Virus record (IMG/VR): IMGVR_UViG_3300031758_000701
Span: 1 to 20,669 of that record
DNA: 20,669 bases
Reading direction: 5' to 3' (one strand)
Source: a virus
Numbering within the stretch: position 1 is the stretch's first letter; the number at the start of each line of letters is the position of its first letter. The notes beneath the pieces were generated by a model that saw nothing but the letters and a program-made list of their open reading frames with translations, made no database searches and was not told the origin of the DNA. Shown piece by piece: positions 7,838 to 13,764 of this stretch. The position numbers were made by a program, and so were the translations under genes.

Positions 7838-8442
7838 TTAACACCATCCCATTGACTTCTGACTTTTTCAATTCCATCTTCCCATCGTTCTTGATTGATG
7901 TAAGTTAATGGTGCTGGATTAAATCCATCCTTCCATTGTTTAGATTGTTTCATTGCTTTAACATGAGTAATAATTTTATCTGCAATGCTATCCAACTTCT
8001 TATTAGCCCATTTATCCATACATGGTTTTTTACCTACTTTTCTATTGACTGGATACTCTTTCCAAAACTCTTCGAATCGCACAATAGATATTATCTTATC
8101 TTCTCTTATCTTATCTGGGGCGGATGTTGTCTGCCCATCGTCTGCACTTTGGGCGGAATTTGTGCAAAGCCATTCAGATAAAACTTCTAACATATTGATT
8201 ATATAGTCTTTGTCTTTACGCAATCTAAATGCTATAATATCAACACTAGGTAAATTACCTTCATCTTGACTAGCTAAACACCATAGCTCAAAAAGTGTTG
8301 CTTTTTGATCTGAAGTTAGTTTAAACCAATCTAAATTATTTAAAATATCTCTACCATAAATCTTAAACCATGTCATCTCTTTTCTGTATTTTGGATTAGA
8401 AACATTATAATAATTAAACTTGTCCCAATTTTTTATTCTCAC
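7834..8442 (-). CDS. O-like phage replication initiation protein
   Basis: 202 aa. The N-terminal half (IKNWDKFNYYNVSNPKYRKE, then a helical segment with TSDQKATLFELWCLASQDEG and a winged-helix-like stretch) resembles phage replication proteins that bind the origin. After a variable linker containing DKIREDKI, the C-terminal part has the FEEFWKEYPVNRKVGKKP motif that is shared by many phage and DnaT-like replication proteins and precedes helicase loading. It lies between the Cro-like gene and the DnaB-like helicase. Tandem repeats in the linker DNA (8091-8116) may belong to the origin. Confidence 0.75.
   Translation of the reverse strand: MRIKNWDKFNYYNVSNPKYRKEMTWFKIYGRDILNNLDWFKLTSDQKATLFELWCLASQDEGNLPSVDIIAFRLRKDKDYIINMLEVLSEWLCTNSAQSADDGQTTSAPDKIREDKIISIVRFEEFWKEYPVNRKVGKKPCMDKWANKKLDSIADKIITHVKAMKQSKQWKDGFNPAPLTYINQERWEDGIEKVRSQWDGVK
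8091..8116. repeat. Two 11-nt direct repeats TTATCTTATCT in the O-like gene
   Basis: Copies at 8091-8101 and 8106-8116, 15 nt apart, in an A+T-rich part of the linker (encoding DKIREDKI). Lambda places its origin iterons inside the O gene at a similar spot, so this is a candidate origin. Similar 'KIREDKI' runs are frequent in this protein class, so the repeats could be a coding feature only. Confidence 0.35.
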
Positions 8443-8443
8443 A

Positions 8444-8638
8444 TTATTCTCCTTGTGGAATAGTTTCGGCTTGTCTTCTCTTAATTAAAATTTCTTCAAT
8501 TTGCTCTGCACGTTTCTTTGGAATATCTTTAGTTGGTTCTTTAGCCCAATACTGAATAGCTTGAATAGAAATATCTAAAGCATATGCCATCTTGCGTCTT
8601 GAGTTATTAAAGTGTGATACAGCTTCCGTAAAGTTCAT
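8444..8638 (-). CDS. Cro/CI-like HTH repressor
   Basis: 64 aa, first gene of the leftward operon. The pattern TEAVSHFNNSRRKMAYALDI, then SIQAIQYWAKE and IPKKRAEQIEEILI, matches lambda Cro-type proteins ('hf-s-k-LA-LGIt-qAi-W....IP..RA.qIE..t'), with the recognition helix near residues 24-32. Its ATG follows AAGGAGACTTAA 22 nt or so after the predicted transcription start. It probably binds sites near the divergent promoters and adjusts early transcription. No CI-type long repressor or integrase is seen in the window, so lysogeny is uncertain. Confidence 0.8.
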   Translation of the reverse strand: MNFTEAVSHFNNSRRKMAYALDISIQAIQYWAKEPTKDIPKKRAEQIEEILIKRRQAETIPQGE

Positions 8639-8667
8639 TTAAGTCTCCTTATTAAAAATGAGACATG

Positions 8668-8696
8668 ACTATAACACCTATTTAAAATCTTGTCAA
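8668..8696 (-). promoter_or_regulatory. Leftward early promoter (cro-O-P-nin-Q operon)
   Basis: TTGACA (8696-8691), exactly 17-nt spacer, TATAGT (8673-8668). Transcription would begin near 8661, about 22 nt before the Cro-like ATG. The -35 box lies inside an 11-nt palindrome. Confidence 0.8.
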
Positions 8697-8698
8697 GA
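8688..8698. promoter_or_regulatory. 11-nt palindrome TCTTGTCAAGA over the -35 box
   Basis: Perfect around one central base (TCTTG-T-CAAGA). It has the same CTTG-N-CAAG core as the palindromes at 80-90 and 418-428 and lies exactly where a repressor would block polymerase. A likely ligand is the Cro-like protein encoded just downstream; this is inference. Confidence 0.45.
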
Positions 8699-8738
8699 AG
8701 TTAAAAGTCGGATAAATACCACCCTATTAAAATAGTTG

Positions 8739-8767
8739 TTGACAATAATACAAAGTAGGAGTATAGT
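8739..8767 (+). promoter_or_regulatory. Rightward early promoter (recombination operon)
   Basis: TTGACA (8739-8744), 17-nt spacer, TATAGT (8762-8767), identical in both hexamers and spacer length to the leftward promoter. It leads into the small membrane gene at 8792, whose ribosome site TAGGAG follows about 14 nt later. Confidence 0.8.
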
Positions 8768-8791
8768 GGCTGTTCTAGTTTAGGAGTTGAT

Positions 8792-8917
8792 ATGGAAAGA
8801 TTTATTCGTATTATTACTAATGAACGATTGCAAAAAAAGTTTACACAAAAGTTCTATTATGTGGTAAAGTGGTTTTTAGTAATATTTTGGGGGTATTTTT
8901 TATGGCATCTAATTTAA
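8792..8917 (+). CDS. 41-residue membrane protein, first gene of the rightward operon
   Basis: Starts behind TAGGAGTTGAT, close to the promoter. A basic N-terminal part (MERFIRIITNERLQKKFTQK) is followed by a hydrophobic aromatic-rich segment (WFLVIFWGYFLWHLI), so a single C-terminal membrane anchor is likely. It overlaps the next start by 16 nt. No family recognised. Confidence 0.55.
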   Translation: MERFIRIITNERLQKKFTQKFYYVVKWFLVIFWGYFLWHLI

Positions 8918-9087
8918 GACGAGTATCAGAAATATTGCATGACATGGTAGAAGAGTTTAAACAATCTAATGACGAATGGGAGAAGCGTTATGGATCAACA
9001 AATGTTTCACGATCAAGTAATGATGCAACAACAAATGAAAGAAGTAAACAAATACATAAAGGAGACAAGCAAGATGGGAGTTTATAA
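8902..9087 (+). CDS. Small charged protein, unknown function (61 aa)
   Basis: The start at 8902 (MASNLRRVSEILHDMVEEF) overlaps the previous stop. The upstream ATG at 8869 would lie deep inside that gene. Residues 1-30 look like a real amphipathic helix, but the second half (from about residue 31) is Ser/Asn/Thr-rich and low in hydrophobic residues. It ends 14 nt inside the ERF gene. A second frame, open from 8990 and joined to ERF, covers the same DNA, so only one of the two may be translated over 8990-9073. Confidence 0.4.
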   Translation: MASNLRRVSEILHDMVEEFKQSNDEWEKRYGSTNVSRSSNDATTNERSKQIHKGDKQDGSL

Positions 9088-9490
9088 AAAATTAATGAAA
9101 GCTAGATTAGCATTACAAAATACTAATCTTACTAAATCTGGGCATAATAAATTTGCTGGATATAAATACTTTGAACTAGGTGATTTTTTACCAGTTATTC
9201 AAAAAATATTTGATGATTTAAGTTTATGTGGAGTTGTATCTTTTGGTACAGAAATTGCTACATTAACTATCACAGATATTGAAGATGGTTCAGAAACACA
9301 AATTACAAGCCCTATGTCTACTGCTGCTCTTAAAGGTTGCCATGAGGTGCAAAATTTGGGGGCGGTTCAGACATACATTCGCAGGTATCTTTGGGTGGCA
9401 GCCCTTGAGATTGTTGAATCTGACGTGGTAGATGCTAGTGCTGGTGCTGTTATCAAAATGAAAGATACCAAAGCAGAGGACTTTATCTAA
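9074..9490 (+). CDS. ERF-family single-strand annealing protein
   Basis: 138 aa from the preferred ATG at 9074, which has AAAGGAG 9 nt upstream. The sequence GVYKKLMKARLALQNTNLTK, GHNKFAGYKYFELGDFLP, the GHE-like stretch KGCHEVQNLGAVQTYIRRYL and ALEIVESDV follow the ERF family ('N-x-x-x-x-YKYx', 'x-GA-x-x-x-Y-x-R-R-Y'). ERF proteins anneal complementary single strands in phage recombination and work with an exonuclease, here the next gene (start overlaps the ERF stop). An in-frame ATG at 8990 would add a Met/Gln-rich extension; homologues usually start close to MGVYKKL. Confidence 0.85.
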   Translation: MGVYKKLMKARLALQNTNLTKSGHNKFAGYKYFELGDFLPVIQKIFDDLSLCGVVSFGTEIATLTITDIEDGSETQITSPMSTAALKGCHEVQNLGAVQTYIRRYLWVAALEIVESDVVDASAGAVIKMKDTKAEDFI

Positions 9491-10092
9491 TGGAACAGCG
9501 TTCAGAAGAGTGGTTTCAAGCACGACTAGGCAAAGTTACGGCTAGTCGTGTAGCTGATGTTCTAGCAAAGATTAAGAGTGGTGAATCTGCGTCTAGACGT
9601 AACTACAAAATTCAGCTAGTAAGTGAAAGACTTACAGGTGAAAGGCAAGAAACATATGTAAACCAAGCGATGCAAGATGGAATTGATAGAGAGTTCTATG
9701 CTAGGGAAAGATATGTGCAACAATTCGGGGCAGTGGAAGAAGTAGGATTCATTAAACATCCTACTTTGGAAGCTGGTGCAAGTCCAGATGGTATGGTTGG
9801 AGATGATGGTATTCTTGAAATTAAATGTCCTATGGGAAGCACGCATACAGAAACATTGATGACTCAAGATATTCCAAGTAAGTACATACCGCAAGTGCAA
9901 TTTCAGCTTTTGGTGACGGGTCGTAAATGGTGTGATTTTGTTAGTTATAACCCAATGTTTCCAGAGCATTTACAGTTATTCGTAAAGCGTGTGGAAGCAG
10001 ACCCTGTTTACCAAAAAGAGTTAGAATCAGAAGTAAAGCAGTTTTTAGATGAAGTAGATGATGTAATCAACAAACTAAAGGAAATTAAATGA
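9490..10092 (+). CDS. YqaJ/lambda-exonuclease family recombination nuclease
   Basis: 200 aa. The N-terminal EEWFQARLGKVTASRVADVL, the central ASPDGM with Asp100, and LEIKCP with Glu110 and Lys112 make the catalytic D-x(n)-E-x-K of the YqaJ viral recombinase family. The YIPQVQFQLLVTG helix is also diagnostic. It digests one strand of double-stranded DNA to expose single strands for the ERF annealing protein encoded immediately upstream (ATG overlaps the ERF stop). The pair equals lambda exo-bet in function. Confidence 0.93.
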   Translation: MEQRSEEWFQARLGKVTASRVADVLAKIKSGESASRRNYKIQLVSERLTGERQETYVNQAMQDGIDREFYARERYVQQFGAVEEVGFIKHPTLEAGASPDGMVGDDGILEIKCPMGSTHTETLMTQDIPSKYIPQVQFQLLVTGRKWCDFVSYNPMFPEHLQLFVKRVEADPVYQKELESEVKQFLDEVDDVINKLKEIK

Positions 10093-10301
10093 GACTAACA
10101 GAAGAACAAAGACTAAAACTTATGATGGCTTCTAGTGGTTTAACGCCAAGAAAGTTTTGGGATTTAGGTGAGGAAGGACAAGCACCTTATATGGAAAAAC
10201 TACATGCGGCAATAGATGAAATATTAGAAGAAAATCCAGACGCATTTAGAGGGTCGGTAGTAAAAAGGCATTATACTAGACGTAAAAACGCAGTTAGATA
10301 A
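10089..10301 (+). CDS. Small phage protein, unknown function (70 aa)
   Basis: ATGA overlap with the exonuclease stop. The product has an N-terminal helical region (MRLTEEQRLKLMMASSGLTP), a central segment (GQAPYMEKLHAAIDEILEEN) and a basic end (KRHYTRRKNAVR) that could bind nucleic acid. It probably works with the recombination genes on either side. No recognised family. Confidence 0.65.
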   Translation: MRLTEEQRLKLMMASSGLTPRKFWDLGEEGQAPYMEKLHAAIDEILEENPDAFRGSVVKRHYTRRKNAVR

Positions 10302-10316
10302 CTTAAGGAGAAAAGA

Positions 10317-10553
10317 ATGGCAGAACAAAAGTATGATAACACTAACACCTTTACATTGTTTAAGAACGATCAGGGGGACAATCCTAAAAAGCCAAATTAC
10401 ACTGGGATTGCAAACGTAGATGGTATTGAGTTTAGGATTGCTGGTTGGATTCGTGAAGGAAAGAACGGTAAGTTTATTTCTGGAACAGTACAACTAAAAG
10501 ATGGTGATGTGAAGCCTAAACAGGCAGAGGTAGATGAGGATGTTCCTTTCTAG
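10317..10553 (+). CDS. Short SSB-like protein with DEDVPF tip (78 aa)
   Basis: Starts behind TTAAGGAGAAAAGA. The sequence NTFTLFKNDQGDNPKKPNYT, GIEFRIAGWIREGKNGKFIS and TVQLKDG reads as a small beta-rich (OB-like) domain. The C-terminus ends DEDVPF, the acidic-then-hydrophobic tip that in bacterial SSB (DDDIPF) recruits repair proteins. It follows the ERF and exonuclease genes, a usual place for a phage single-strand-binding protein. It is much shorter than E. coli SSB (177 aa). DUF736-like proteins are another reading of the same fold. Confidence 0.65.
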   Translation: MAEQKYDNTNTFTLFKNDQGDNPKKPNYTGIANVDGIEFRIAGWIREGKNGKFISGTVQLKDGDVKPKQAEVDEDVPF

Positions 10554-10573
10554 GAACACCCTCTCTAAATGTA

Positions 10574-10645
10574 TTACTTGTTCATAACGTACATTGTAAC
10601 TTCAAAGCCGAAACGCATTTCAGTTGCTGATGGTTTTGTCCACAT
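10574..10645 (-). CDS. pqqA: PqqA, PQQ precursor peptide (23 aa)
   Basis: ATG at 10645-10643, stop TAA at 10576-10574, ribosome site AAAGGA 7 nt upstream. The peptide begins MWTKPSATEMR and ends FEVTMYVMNK, with Glu15 and Tyr19 separated by three residues. In PqqA this Glu and Tyr are cross-linked by the radical SAM enzyme PqqE (with PqqD as carrier) and are the source of all carbon and nitrogen of PQQ. Length (22-24 aa), the Trp-x-x-Pro start, RxGFEVTMY and the basic end are typical of proteobacterial PqqA. No pqqB-E genes are in the window, so the host enzymes would have to process it. It runs against the flanking rightward operon, like an independently controlled extra gene, and its leader holds the repeats at 10656-10737. 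Methylotrophs need PQQ for methanol dehydrogenase. Confidence 0.92.
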   Translation of the reverse strand: MWTKPSATEMRFGFEVTMYVMNK

Positions 10646-10655
10646 GATTATGTCC

Positions 10656-10737
10656 TTTGTATGTAAAAATTAACGATTTTTGCTACACAAACATATTTGT
10701 ATGTAATAGATGCAAGACAAAGTAGTTTGTATGTAAT
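10656..10737. repeat. Three TTTGTATGTAA repeats in the pqqA leader
   Basis: Copies of TTTGTATGTAA at 10656-10666, 10696-10706 and 10726-10736. The second and third extend to TTTGTATGTAAT. Spacing is 40 and 30 nt, close to whole turns of DNA. In the pqqA direction they read TTACATACAAA, and the nearest copy abuts its ribosome site. No convincing -35/-10 pair was found in either direction, so regulator sites or a phage-specific promoter element are possible. Confidence 0.55.
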
Positions 10738-10809
10738 ATATTGCTCTTTTTGCAATACAAAAGCAACTAATAAACATTTATTTTACCCTAATGAAAATAC
10801 GGAGAGATT

Positions 10810-11172
10810 ATGGATTATGATGATGATGTAGTAGACTATGACGATAATAATAGGCTTTCAGAGCTTCCAGAAGCTAAACTATTGATAGCAATGCTATACC
10901 AAACAATAGATGACGCTATGTATGTTCCTAAAAAATATAAAAGAAATGCAACTGAAAGATCTATAACAACTTTAAAGTCTAAAAACAAATTAGCTTTACG
11001 AGACAAGGTAGATGCTATACAATGGTTATTTGATGATAACGATGTTTATGACCTGTGTTGTGATTTAGCTGGCATGAGCAAATACAACATTAGAGAAATG
11101 GTTATTAACAAAATAGGTGCTGATGTCATTATGCCTTTAGTTAGCGGATTCTATCAACCAAATGGACATTAA
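10810..11172 (+). CDS. Phage protein, possible HTH (120 aa)
   Basis: Preceded by ACGGAGAGATT. The N-terminus is very acidic (MDYDDDVVDYDDNNRLSELP). The C-terminal part, DAIQWLFDDNDVYDLCCDLA then GMSKYNIREMV, resembles a module seen in phage and bacterial proteins, 'A-x-x-W-(I/L)...F-x-x-x-C-x-x-L-x-x-x-x-x-x-(L/I)R', thought to be a helix-turn-helix. It may be a regulator of the downstream genes. The evidence is a pattern match only. Confidence 0.6.
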   Translation: MDYDDDVVDYDDNNRLSELPEAKLLIAMLYQTIDDAMYVPKKYKRNATERSITTLKSKNKLALRDKVDAIQWLFDDNDVYDLCCDLAGMSKYNIREMVINKIGADVIMPLVSGFYQPNGH

Positions 11173-11542
11173 TGCTTTAGAACTAGATATAGCGTGTTAT
11201 GCTACCGCTGTTTACCACGAAGTTAATACAAGAACATTGGAGGAAAAAATTGGAGTCATTAATACTATACGGAATAGGGTTCGTGATGGTCGTTGGGGTA
11301 ATTCTGTATGTGCTGTCGTTTATTCTAATAATCAGTTTGCTGTGCAAGATCAGTCCCACCATCCAGTTAATGAAAGGGCGTATTTGGAGACTAAACTATT
11401 GGTTATTGATACGATTGTTCATAATAAATATGCTAACCCAGTTGCAAATGCTTTATATTTCCATGATGACTCTATACCGCCAAAAAAAGAATGGTTTGGT
11501 AAAAGAAAAAAAACACATATAGGAAGGATGGTATTTTATTAA
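11162..11542 (+). CDS. SleB-type cell wall hydrolase
   Basis: 126 aa. Residues 10-70 read IACYATAVYHEVNTRTLEEK, IGVINTIRNRVRDGRWGNSV, CAVVYSNNQFAV, and later ANPVANALYFHDD, which is the Hydrolase_2 (SleB) pattern: catalytic Glu20, 'I-x-NRV', 'VCxVVY-x-x-x-QF', and 'A-x-x-F'. These enzymes cleave peptidoglycan glycan strands. No signal peptide is present, so it would need a holin or act late. It overlaps the preceding gene by 11 nt and ends on the next start. Its early-operon location, far from the holin-like block, is unusual for an endolysin. Confidence 0.8.
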   Translation: MDINALELDIACYATAVYHEVNTRTLEEKIGVINTIRNRVRDGRWGNSVCAVVYSNNQFAVQDQSHHPVNERAYLETKLLVIDTIVHNKYANPVANALYFHDDSIPPKKEWFGKRKKTHIGRMVFY

Positions 11543-11772
11543 TGAAACCTTTAGCGTGGCTTGTAGAAGAATTTGATGGAAATGGAACACTTGTATGGTC
11601 TGGAATTATGACATCAGAACCTAAAGAAATGTCATGGTTTAAAGACCTTAAATCTAAACTGCATAACGTTACAATCACGCCATTAATACCAGATACAAAG
11701 AATATTGTTAAAGTAACAAATGTTAAAAAATATGATAGCAAGAGATTAACAGAGGCAAATAATGGACTTTAA
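11542..11772 (+). CDS. Small phage protein, unknown function (76 aa)
   Basis: Directly follows the hydrolase (stop and start share a base). Residues 1-25 (MKPLAWLVEEFDGNGTLVWS) recall a short beta-rich module seen in other phage proteins, 'W-(L/V)-x-E-x-x-x-x-x-G'. The rest is basic (KVTNVKKYDSKRLTEANNG). Overlaps the next start by 11 nt. Confidence 0.6.
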   Translation: MKPLAWLVEEFDGNGTLVWSGIMTSEPKEMSWFKDLKSKLHNVTITPLIPDTKNIVKVTNVKKYDSKRLTEANNGL

Positions 11773-11908
11773 ACCACTTACACAGGAACAAATAATTGAT
11801 GCTTATAGTAAAGTTTTTCCAACACGATATGAGCCAATGACAATAGATAGAATGATACAATTTGCAAGAATTATAGAACAATTACATGGAGTAAGATATG
11901 AAACCTAG
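11762..11908 (+). CDS. Small protein, unknown function (48 aa)
   Basis: Starts inside the previous gene and ends 11 nt inside the glycosyltransferase gene, filling a gap that is otherwise unexplained. The product starts MDFKPLTQEQIIDAYSKVF and ends IIEQLHGVRYET. Many small phage proteins have a similar 'L-T-x-E-x-I...F-A-R-x-I-E' pattern between early genes. Function unknown. Confidence 0.65.
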   Translation: MDFKPLTQEQIIDAYSKVFPTRYEPMTIDRMIQFARIIEQLHGVRYET

Positions 11909-12623
11909 TTTATTTATAGCAACACCAATGTACGGAGGGCTGTGTTATGGTACATATCTAGAATCAATGTTAAAGCTACAGGCATGGCTTATCTCTAAAG
12001 ACATAGACGCATACTTTTCATTTCTTTATAATGAAAGCCTGATTACTCGTGGTCGTAACACATTAGTGAATGACTTCTTAAAAGGTGACGCATCTCATAT
12101 GATGTTCATAGATGCTGATATTAGTTTTGAGCCAAAACACTTTTTTAAAATGCTTGATGCTGATGTAGATATTATTTGTGGCGTGTATCCCAAAAAAGAA
12201 ATAAATTGGGCTGGTGTAAAGTTTGCTATTGACAAGAAAGTTCCAGAGCACCAACTAAAATACTTTACAGGAGATTATGTAGTTAATCTTGTAAATGAAA
12301 AAGACCTAGTTCCTACAGATAAACCTTTTGAAGTGAAGCATGGCGGTACAGGCTTTATGTTAATTAAACGTGAAGTGTTTGAGAAGCTAAAAGAAAAATG
12401 TCCATCATACACTCATAATATGAATGATACCAATGACAATTCTGATTTAGGCGATAAGATCACAGAATACTTTGCTACAAGTATAGATGAAAATAATCAC
12501 TTGCTATCAGAAGACTATCATTTCTGTAAACTAGCTCGTGACAATGGTTTAAAGGTACATGGTGCTGCTTGGACACAATTAGTCCATACGGGAACCTATC
12601 AGTATAGTGGAAGGCTTGTATGA
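11898..12623 (+). CDS. GT-A type glycosyltransferase
   Basis: 241 aa. LFIATPMYGGLCYGTYLESM at the N-terminus, the NESLITRGRNTLVNDFL helix, MMFIDADISFEP with the metal-binding DAD at residues 72-74, and later HGGTGFMLIKREVFEKL plus a SEDYHFCKLARDNG acid motif define a GT-A sugar transferase of the kind found in many phages. It uses nucleotide-sugars. It overlaps the FkbM methyltransferase start (ATGA), so the two probably modify the same substrate, for example a host surface glycan or phage DNA/protein. The acceptor is not visible. Confidence 0.85.
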   Translation: MKPSLFIATPMYGGLCYGTYLESMLKLQAWLISKDIDAYFSFLYNESLITRGRNTLVNDFLKGDASHMMFIDADISFEPKHFFKMLDADVDIICGVYPKKEINWAGVKFAIDKKVPEHQLKYFTGDYVVNLVNEKDLVPTDKPFEVKHGGTGFMLIKREVFEKLKEKCPSYTHNMNDTNDNSDLGDKITEYFATSIDENNHLLSEDYHFCKLARDNGLKVHGAAWTQLVHTGTYQYSGRLV

Positions 12624-13213
12624 TTATACCGAATAACATGATTAGCCATGTAGGCAAAATATTTCAAGGTGAATATGCAACACTTGGAGTTATAGAAAAT
12701 CCTTATATCATAGACATAGGTGCTAACGTAGGTGGCTTTGCGGTATGGGCACATGAGTTCTTTAAAAACCCAAAGATTGATTGCTATGAGCCTATAAATG
12801 CTAATTATGACCTATTAAGACAGAACATAGAAGGTACTGACATTGCCATTAGAAATATAGCAATAGGCAAAGAGGATGGTAAACGCATGATGTATTACGG
12901 TTTAGATAACTGTGGGGAATCTAGCCTGTTTCAAGGTGATAGGCAATTAGAAGAAGGTGAAATGGTTAAAGTAATGTCATCTAAACATTTGCCACGATGC
13001 GACATTATGAAGATAGATACAGAAGGTGCAGAGATTGAGATACTAGAAAATCTAGTAAATTTTCCACTTGTATTTTTAATAGAATTTCATTCTGCATATA
13101 ATAGACGTAAAATAGATCAATTATTACTTGACTATACGCTATTAGAGTGTACAATGCGAGGAAGAGATTATGGAATACTCAAATATATTAAATCATCTTT
13201 GGTAGAGGTTTGA
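12620..13213 (+). CDS. FkbM family SAM methyltransferase
   Basis: 197 aa. IIDIGANVGGF at residues 30-40 binds S-adenosylmethionine, with CYEP at 55-58, RNIAIG, IMKIDTEGAEIEIL and LIEFHS. These are the diagnostic motifs of FkbM methyltransferases, which O-methylate sugars or small molecules. Coupled to the glycosyltransferase by an ATGA overlap. A capping methylation of the added sugar is a fair inference. Confidence 0.9.
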   Translation: MIIPNNMISHVGKIFQGEYATLGVIENPYIIDIGANVGGFAVWAHEFFKNPKIDCYEPINANYDLLRQNIEGTDIAIRNIAIGKEDGKRMMYYGLDNCGESSLFQGDRQLEEGEMVKVMSSKHLPRCDIMKIDTEGAEIEILENLVNFPLVFLIEFHSAYNRRKIDQLLLDYTLLECTMRGRDYGILKYIKSSLVEV

Positions 13214-13214
13214 C

Positions 13215-13493
13215 ATGGGAGCACCAAAAAGTTATAATAGGCAATTTATAGATGAGATACAAGCATTTATAGATTCGCCTCAATGTAGAACTAATACAGA
13301 TGCTAGAAGGCATTTTAAGATGAATGGTATTAAGTTAAAAGAATTGCAAGCTAAAGGTTTATTAAAGTTAAAGCCAACATTAAGTAAGACTATGGTAGCA
13401 AGAATGGGTAATGCAGCAAATAAAGGAAAGCAAATGTTTCCTTTGCAAGATAGGTCAGTTATTAAATATCAAGGAGGAGTTAAGTATGGATAA
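13215..13493 (+). CDS. Basic phage protein, possible DNA binding (92 aa)
   Basis: Follows the FkbM stop by one base. The sequence SYNRQFIDEIQAFIDSPQCR, then TNTDARRHFKMNGIKLKELQ and LKPTLSKTMVARMG is helical and very basic, with a segment that could be a helix-turn-helix (AFIDS..NTDARRHFKMN). The end (NAANKGKQMF) is Lys/Gln-rich. It overlaps the DUF3310 gene by 8 nt. No family recognised. Confidence 0.6.
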   Translation: MGAPKSYNRQFIDEIQAFIDSPQCRTNTDARRHFKMNGIKLKELQAKGLLKLKPTLSKTMVARMGNAANKGKQMFPLQDRSVIKYQGGVKYG

Positions 13494-13764
13494 TGTAAAT
13501 CATCCAAAGCATTATTTGGTAGGTGGGTTAGAGGCAATAGATATTATTGCTAGTCGTTTAACAAAGGAAGAGTTTATTGGATACCTAAAAGGTTCTAAAT
13601 TGAAGTATGATTTAAGATACCCATTCAAAGGTAGACCAGAAGAGGATTTAGCTAAATCTGAATGGTATAAGAATAAACTTGTAGAAGTAATGCGTGATGA
13701 AGAAGCTATTAATCCGCCAGAGGTAACAGCTCAACTACAAAGGCTAGAGATGGTAGACGACTAA
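13486..13764 (+). CDS. DUF3310 protein (gp1.7-like)
   Basis: 92 aa from the ATG behind AAGGAGGAGTTAAGT; an in-frame ATG 75 nt upstream lies inside the previous gene. VNHPKHYLVGGLEAIDIIAS, the FIGYLKGSKLKYDLRYPFKG core and a WYKNKLVEVM end are the DUF3310 signature ('NxPxHYx...E-x-I-D-x-I...G-x-x-x-K-Y-x-x-R'). T7 gp1.7, of this family, is a nucleotide kinase. The reaction is not proved for most members. Last gene of the rightward operon. Confidence 0.85.
   Translation: MDNVNHPKHYLVGGLEAIDIIASRLTKEEFIGYLKGSKLKYDLRYPFKGRPEEDLAKSEWYKNKLVEVMRDEEAINPPEVTAQLQRLEMVDD

What the first reader, a model, noticed from the sequence alone, without database searches (positions are those of the whole stretch)
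10574..10645. A phage-borne pqqA: a metabolic gene for methanol oxidation
The 23-residue minus-strand frame has every hallmark of PqqA: W-x-x-P start, RxGFEVTMY core and Glu15/Tyr19 spaced by three. Tiny genes like this are missed by normal callers. The phage has no pqqB-E in the window, so it would supply only the precursor peptide, which is consumed stoichiometrically, for the host PQQ enzymes. Methanol dehydrogenases need PQQ, so the gene could keep methanol oxidation running during infection and points to a methylotroph host. I cannot say whether such genes have already been reported in phages.
Basis: partly seen in the sequence, partly recalled or inferred. Interest (0 to 1): 0.92.

Follow-up and report, generated by a model that had tools for sequence, protein, structure and literature searches.

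The report
Phage-borne PQQ precursor gene (pqqA)
This virus of methanol-eating bacteria carries a tiny, previously unannotated gene for the peptide that the host uses up to make PQQ, the cofactor of methanol dehydrogenase; the same gene sits in hundreds of related and unrelated viruses, which suggests that these viruses keep their host's fuel line running while they multiply.

Summary
Window 10574-10645 (-) encodes MWTKPSATEMRFGFEVTMYVMNK, scoring twice the curated cut-offs for PqqA (PF08042 E=3e-11, TIGR02107 E=2e-10). All 76 relatives of this phage with room carry it at the same antisense site, with pN/pS 0.11. All nine named Methylophilales phage records found in the GenBank phage collection carry it (at least five very different phage types), and none is annotated as pqqA. 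No pqqC, D, E or xoxF lies in 1.55 Mb around the copies from the first two screens. Ten of ten methylotroph genomes have one PqqE but 1-12 pqqA copies. Most likely the phage supplies only the consumable substrate of PQQ synthesis to host enzymes. Transcript, peptide and PQQ in infected cells remain unshown. Phage pqqA is not new: Coutinho et al. 2020 (PMC7678222) reported it in one T4-like Baikal contig with methanol dehydrogenase. New are its breadth, its solitary state, its fixation in two lineages (76/76; 58/60), its patchiness in two others, and its absence from annotations.

The parts
10574..10645 (-). pqqA, 23-residue PQQ precursor peptide MWTKPSATEMRFGFEVTMYVMNK, stop TAA included
   Evidence: PF08042 E=3.2e-11 and TIGR02107 E=2.3e-10; conserved in 76/76 relatives; pN/pS 0.11
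10653..10658 (-). Shine-Dalgarno-like AAAGGA, 7 nt before the ATG
   Evidence: read from sequence; all 115 distinct phage pqqA leaders carry an SD-like motif against 58% of other phage ORFs, whose starts were taken naively as the first M
10646..10809 (.). divergent intergenic region between pqqA and the gene at 10810; presumed to hold the pqqA promoter. No sigma-70 match stands out here
   Evidence: promoter scan not above shuffles; best match TTGTCT-19-TATGTT, 8 of 12
10317..10553 (+). ssDNA-binding protein gene, convergent with pqqA
   Evidence: PHROG 18154 E=3.5e-13; annotated as SSB in ctXG6705
9490..10092 (+). YqaJ-family exonuclease gene, used as anchor for the conservation test
   Evidence: PF09588 E=3e-24
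8969..9490 (+). Erf-like ssDNA annealing protein, same recombination operon
   Evidence: PHROG 155 E=5.5e-26
10810..11172 (+). gene of unknown function, divergent from pqqA
   Evidence: no Pfam match over cut-off
11162..11542 (+). cell wall hydrolase (lysis) gene
   Evidence: PF07486 E=2.3e-16; PHROG 938 endolysin

Best explanation
The gene is a real, selected pqqA carried as a one-gene auxiliary metabolic cassette. During infection of a Methylophilales host the phage would make extra PqqA peptide; the host's PqqE/PqqD crosslink its Glu15 and Tyr19, and PqqB, PqqC and the protease finish PQQ, which loads the periplasmic methanol dehydrogenase XoxF. Each PQQ uses up one PqqA, so the substrate is the part that must be replaced when host transcription fails, whereas the enzymes last; the phage therefore needs to bring only this gene. 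Shown: PqqA identity, conservation and protein-level selection, solitary state, host-linked distribution, presence of PqqE and multiple pqqA in the hosts, and XoxF-type dehydrogenase in the three host genomes searched. Inferred: expression in infection, processing by host enzymes, PqqA being limiting, and benefit through methanol oxidation.
For: Profile matches. 76/76 relatives of the window phage and 58/60 relatives of P19250A keep it at fixed but different sites. pN/pS 0.11 in the lineage and 0.165 over 141 phage sequences, as in host copies (0.18). All nine named Methylophilales phage records found in the collection carry it; no phage with another stated host does, with three PqqA query types, although nearest TerL relatives are pelagiphages and Vibrio phages. 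Invariant E15 and Y19, the residues that become PQQ. Hosts: PqqE over cut-off once in 10/10 genomes, pqqA 1-12 copies, agreeing with 3-12 pqqA copies and single pqqBCDE reported for Methylophilaceae (PMC4109929). PQQ-dependent alcohol dehydrogenase of the XoxF type in 3/3 host genomes searched, one of them a fragment at a contig end. No pqqC/D/E or xoxF in 1.55 Mb around phage pqqA, with positive control. Five IMG/VR contigs encode XoxF and three of these also carry pqqA within 8 kb. -10-like boxes at -60 to -51 in 21% of distinct leaders against 3% of other genes suggest dedicated transcription.
Against: No transcript, peptide or PQQ measurement. The gene is patchy in T4-like Melnitz relatives, even among contigs 99-100% identical in the neighbouring protein, and in MEP401 relatives (3 of 12 at that site), so it is not essential everywhere. 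Host cells already have several pqqA copies, and PQQ bound in methanol dehydrogenase may outlast a lytic cycle. In Acetobacter and Gluconobacter pqqA is only one of several genes whose overexpression raises PQQ (PMC7936290). The window itself shows no convincing sigma-70 promoter.
Confidence: 0.8

Rival explanations
1. The frame is a neutral passenger picked up from hosts and carried by chance, with no benefit to the phage.
For: Copies resemble host pqqA closely (median 90% nucleotide identity to the nearest host copy); patchy gain and loss in the T4-like lineage.
Against: 76/76 and 58/60 retention in two lineages; pN/pS 0.11-0.17; no nucleotide sequence shared exactly with a sampled host copy, and phage and host copies separate on the tree (17 label changes against 87 in shuffles), so copies are old and maintained in phages.
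Confidence: 0.03
2. Phage PqqA is a competitor or decoy that occupies PqqD/PqqE or a peptide-sensing partner and changes host physiology, rather than feeding PQQ synthesis.
For: Only the peptide is carried; position 4 and the N-terminal half vary more than the core.
Against: Reactive residues E15 and Y19 and the core are intact, and several phage peptides are identical to host PqqA, so they should be processed like host PqqA. Five XoxF-bearing IMG/VR contigs exist and three carry pqqA, which points to supporting methanol oxidation.
Confidence: 0.1
3. The conserved element works as RNA or DNA (leader hairpin, terminator or antisense transcript to the ssb/exonuclease operon) and the peptide is incidental.
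For: pqqA runs antisense towards the recombination operon in the window and in Venkman; leaders are enriched in hairpins (31% with stem of 7 or more against 6% shuffled).
Against: Position relative to other genes differs between lineages, while amino acids are kept and third positions vary. Peptide-level selection is clear.
Confidence: 0.03

Closest known systems
PqqA of Lake Baikal virus population VP_266 (Coutinho et al. 2020, PMC7678222)
   Same: Phage-encoded PqqA in a virus predicted to infect Methylophilaceae; the same role, support of methanol dehydrogenase, was proposed.
   Different: VP_266 is a T4-like contig that also encodes methanol dehydrogenase. The window phage is a podophage-type fragment with pqqA alone; distribution, conservation and selection were not examined there.
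Host pqqA of Methylophilaceae (multi-copy orphan pqqA)
   Same: Same 23-residue peptide class; some phage and host peptides are identical; hosts also carry extra pqqA away from pqqBCDE.
   Different: Phage copies have own leaders and positions, lower GC at third positions (0.38 against 0.47) and largely form their own groups.
Cyanophage psbA/psbD (photosystem AMGs; own knowledge)
   Same: Phage replaces the part of host energy metabolism that turns over fastest.
   Different: psbA encodes a protein subunit; pqqA encodes a substrate peptide destroyed in making a cofactor.
pmoC of methanotroph phages (own knowledge)
   Same: One gene of a host C1-oxidation system carried alone by phages.
   Different: pmoC is an enzyme subunit, pqqA a cofactor precursor.

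Membership tests
PqqA (PF08042 / TIGR02107) | Profile score above the curated cut-off | tested here: met
   43.3 against 21.1 bits; 40.0 against 20 bits
PqqA (PF08042 / TIGR02107) | Glu and Tyr separated by three residues in a G-x-E-x-T-x-Y core | tested here: met
   E15 and Y19 in the window and in all 141 distinct phage sequences collected by a pattern that includes them; independent retention in 76/76 relatives selected only by their nuclease
PqqA (PF08042 / TIGR02107) | Glu-Tyr crosslinking by PqqE/PqqD and conversion to PQQ | not testable with these tools
   needs biochemistry; host PqqE is present in 10/10 related host genomes
Auxiliary metabolic gene of a phage | Lies in a viral genome among phage genes | tested here: met
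   Erf, YqaJ, SSB, endolysin, head and ejection proteins in the window; isolates with complete genomes carry it
Auxiliary metabolic gene of a phage | Homologue of a host metabolic gene in a plausible host | tested here: met
   10/10 methylotroph genomes have pqqA and PqqE; window phage shares genes with Venkman of Methylophilales H5P1. Host of the window phage itself is inferred
Auxiliary metabolic gene of a phage | Kept by selection in phages | tested here: met
   76/76 and 58/60 retention; pN/pS 0.11-0.17
Auxiliary metabolic gene of a phage | Expressed during infection and changes host metabolism | not testable with these tools
   no infection transcriptome or metabolite data available
Complete viral PQQ pathway | pqqB-E encoded by the phage | tested here: not met
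   no pqqC, pqqD, pqqE or PqqB C-terminal match in 1.55 Mb of viral loci; no PqqE over cut-off in ten larger virus records of 53-340 kb

The most novel reading that the evidence does not exclude
Substrate-only auxiliary genes are a general and overlooked phage strategy: phages of PQQ-dependent bacteria well beyond Methylophilales (GFEVTMYF-type and GMEVTSY-type PqqA, including contigs of 144-340 kb) each carry a lone pqqA, below the size limit of gene callers and absent from PHROGs, to replace the one pathway component that is consumed in making the cofactor.
Probability: 0.5. Interest if true: 0.78.

Novelty: new member of a known kind. Interest (0 to 1): 0.63.

Why it matters
It makes an ecological hypothesis testable in cultured systems: OM43 and LD28 hosts with phages Venkman, MEP301, MEP401, Melnitz and P19250A exist, and every one of these phages carries the gene, unannotated. 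If the peptide is the limiting part of PQQ supply in infection, the finding explains why methylotrophs keep 3-12 pqqA copies beside single pqqB-E, identifies a cheap viral control point on methanol oxidation in sea and lakes, and shows that gene callers and phage family libraries miss a common metabolic gene because it is 72 bases long.

Tried and rejected
(1) Chance ORF or neutral passenger: rejected by profile score, 76/76 conservation and pN/pS. (2) Acinetobacter phage MD-2021a hits: host chromosome, since pqqB, C, D and E lie next to it; not counted. (3) search for related loci with the peptide: too short; replaced by degenerate DNA patterns. (4) Sigma-70 promoter and terminator for the window copy: no excess over shuffles. 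(5) Universal claim for all Methylophilales phages: not made. NCBI taxonomy lists MEP431-434, Venkman EXVC038S and others whose records did not appear in searches; guessed accessions in a gap of a series gave none of them. (6) ctOsX528 (MW202697), 74% identical to MEP401 in TerL, lacks the gene; its host is unknown, so it is no clear counterexample. (7) Melnitz relatives without the gene: checked for diverged copies; the sequences I compared show clean absence between the upstream stop codon and tRNA-Leu. (8) pqqA tree: 69 bases are too few for supported branches; only the label-change count was used. (9) Total number of pqqA contigs in IMG/VR could not be counted because the scan stopped at 120.

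Full report
What is there. The reverse-strand frame at 10574-10645 reads MWTKPSATEMRFGFEVTMYVMNK and has an AAAGGA motif 7 nt before its ATG. It matches the full Pfam PqqA profile and the NCBIfam equivalog for the PQQ precursor peptide at about twice their curated cut-offs. The window is a 20,669-base IMG/VR fragment with phage genes on both sides: Cro-like regulator, DnaB-like helicase, Erf, YqaJ, SSB, endolysin, head and ejection proteins. Its closest named relative is the complete genome ctXG6705 (MW202481, Manatee Spring): 29 ORFs shared at 74% mean identity, with pqqA at the same place. It also shares 10 ORFs with Venkman, a phage of Methylophilales H5P1.

Conservation in the lineage. Of 80 contigs that encode a relative of the neighbouring nuclease, 76 have room for the site and all 76 hold the frame on the opposite strand, with nuclease identity from 60 to 100%. 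Among 41 distinct coding sequences the differences are mostly synonymous (pN 0.044, pS 0.395, ratio 0.11). In an alignment of 57 members the frame is 91-95% conserved per 12-base step, above the 60-75% of most of the intergenic stretch upstream; the start region of the next gene and the end of ssb are also well conserved.

Distribution. tblastn of the peptide against 50,697 GenBank phage records finds nine named Methylophilales phage records (Venkman, MEP301, MEP401, MEP402, four Melnitz, P19250A) and ctXG6705, plus two records of one Acinetobacter assembly, of which the one inspected is host chromosome with pqqBCDE next door. Two other PqqA types as queries find no further phages. Five of the ten records have no feature at the place; in Melnitz-1 and ctXG6705 the annotated hypothetical protein lies on the opposite strand. 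These isolates share few genes: a long-tailed P19250A, a podophage group with Venkman and ctXG6705, MEP301, MEP401 (Zobellviridae) and the T4-like Melnitz (Kyanoviridae). The nearest terminase relatives of Venkman, MEP301 and MEP401 infect SAR11 or Vibrio and do not appear among the pqqA hits, so pqqA follows the host rather than the phage lineage.

IMG/VR. By shared genes the 120 contigs, the window and six reference genomes fall into 12 groups at a threshold of two shared ORFs and 23 at three, fragments included, so these are approximate numbers of contexts. Retention differs by lineage: 76/76 (window), 58/60 (P19250A relatives of at least 77% identity), 3/12 (MEP401 site), and 8 of the 58 Melnitz-anchor loci examined with the Melnitz-type peptide or 9 with any, counting loci that are distant or short. 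In the Melnitz group the gene is a clean insert between a stop codon and tRNA-Leu, with near-identical neighbours lacking it. So it is fixed in some lineages and a mobile accessory gene in others. A pattern for GFEVTMYF types gives 58 contigs (4 already in the first scan), and one for GMEVTxY types gives 6; sampled peptides of both types pass the PF08042 cut-off. Their hosts were not determined.

Surroundings and mechanism. No pqqC, pqqD, pqqE, PqqB C-terminus or xoxF occurs in 1.55 Mb of viral loci from the first two screens; the same queries find the host genes in control DNA. Ten larger records of 53-340 kb contain no PqqE over the cut-off. The hosts have it: ten of ten methylotroph genomes encode PqqE once over the cut-off, with 1-12 pqqA copies, consistent with the published 3-12 pqqA and single remaining genes in Methylophilaceae (PMC4109929). 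Host pqqA multiplicity is what one expects if peptide supply matters. XoxF was found in only five IMG/VR contigs with one host XoxF query, and three of these also carry pqqA within 8 kb; one, L346, additionally encodes a formate dehydrogenase alpha subunit over its equivalog cut-off. Thus far more phages carry the consumed precursor than the enzyme, although the two searches differ in sensitivity. That PqqA is consumed one per PQQ and that its Glu and Tyr form the PQQ skeleton is established chemistry (own knowledge; see also PMC7678222 refs 50-51). From this I infer that the phage replenishes the consumable and lets host enzymes do the rest.

Expression signals. Over 115 distinct leaders, -10-like boxes cluster at -60 to -51 (21% of leaders against 3% for other phage genes), although combined -35/-10 scores are only slightly above shuffles. 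Hairpins with a stem of at least 7 lie in the -60 to -10 stretch in 31% of methylophage leaders, against 6% in shuffles, 11% for other phage genes and 14% for host pqqA. This fits short single-gene transcripts with a structured 5' end, but is not proof, and the window copy shows no clear promoter.

Origin. No phage coding sequence is identical to a sampled host copy; the nearest host copy is 90% identical at the median, and phage copies have lower GC at third positions (0.38 against 0.47). On a tree of 263 sequences host and phage labels change 17 times against 87 in shuffles. The tree is weak at 69 bases, but it suggests long residence in phages with repeated exchange.

What is known. Coutinho et al. 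2020 reported PqqA with methanol dehydrogenase in Baikal population VP_266 and proposed the same role (PMC7678222). The papers on Melnitz (PMC9004378; PQQ appears only as a medium component), MEP301 (PMC8024684) and MEP401/402 (PMC10580990) do not mention pqqA in the text searched, though their phages carry it. PHROGs v4 has no matching family. The library holds open-licence papers only, so an earlier report elsewhere, for example in the P19250A paper, cannot be excluded.

Verdict. The kind is known from one report; the breadth, solitary state and fixation are new here. Function in infection is untested.

Noticed in passing
L346 (IMGVR_UViG_3300025120_009955), 8001-9872 xoxF, 9955-12792 formate dehydrogenase alpha, 15899+ pqqA: A viral contig with curli-type genes like those of Melnitz encodes XoxF methanol dehydrogenase (TIGR03075, 608 bits), formate dehydrogenase alpha (TIGR01591, 885 bits against cut-off 666) and pqqA: a possible phage methanol-to-CO2 energy module.
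   Followed up: partly
L347 (IMGVR_UViG_3300042891_000377), 8001-13570: 104-kb viral contig with XoxF, PstS phosphate-binding protein, phosphate-selective porin and pqqA in a row.
   Followed up: partly
leaders of phage pqqA, about -60 to -10, many loci (e.g. L103, L045, L060, L105): Hairpins of unrelated sequence lie before the SD, often just after a -10-like box, in about a third of phage pqqA leaders, far above shuffles; possibly an mRNA-stabilising 5' end or a regulatory element.
   Followed up: partly
L087 and L121, -57 to -25 before pqqA: A 12-bp stem followed by a run of T (intrinsic-terminator-like) directly before pqqA, ending the upstream unit or acting as an attenuator.
   Followed up: no
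window 10656-10666, 10696-10706, 10726-10736: Three direct copies of TTTGTATGTAA in the divergent region upstream of pqqA; possible operator sites. Read by eye; related leaders such as L254 and L294 hold similar TTTGTATGTA.
   Followed up: no
L499-L505, upstream of the OB-domain gene: pqqA is present or absent as a small insert beside tRNA-Leu in Melnitz-type phages whose neighbouring protein is 99-100% identical: a natural with/without pair.
   Followed up: yes
L355, L363, L399, L402 and other MYF-type loci: Contigs of 144-340 kb carry a lone pqqA of GFEVTMYF type; PqqE absent. Hosts unidentified.
   Followed up: partly
L341 (IMGVR_UViG_3300031566_004595): Contig with a T4 gp32-like SSB and an unusual PqqA, MKEWFKPQIMETESGMEVTSYLPAELDRA, just over the PF08042 cut-off; host unknown.
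   Followed up: no
window 11898-13213: Glycosyltransferase-like gene followed by an FkbM/RfbT-like methyltransferase in the phage: possible host surface modification.
   Followed up: no
L179 genome (Methylophilales LSUCC0135): Twelve pqqA copies in one host genome with a single PqqE.
   Followed up: partly
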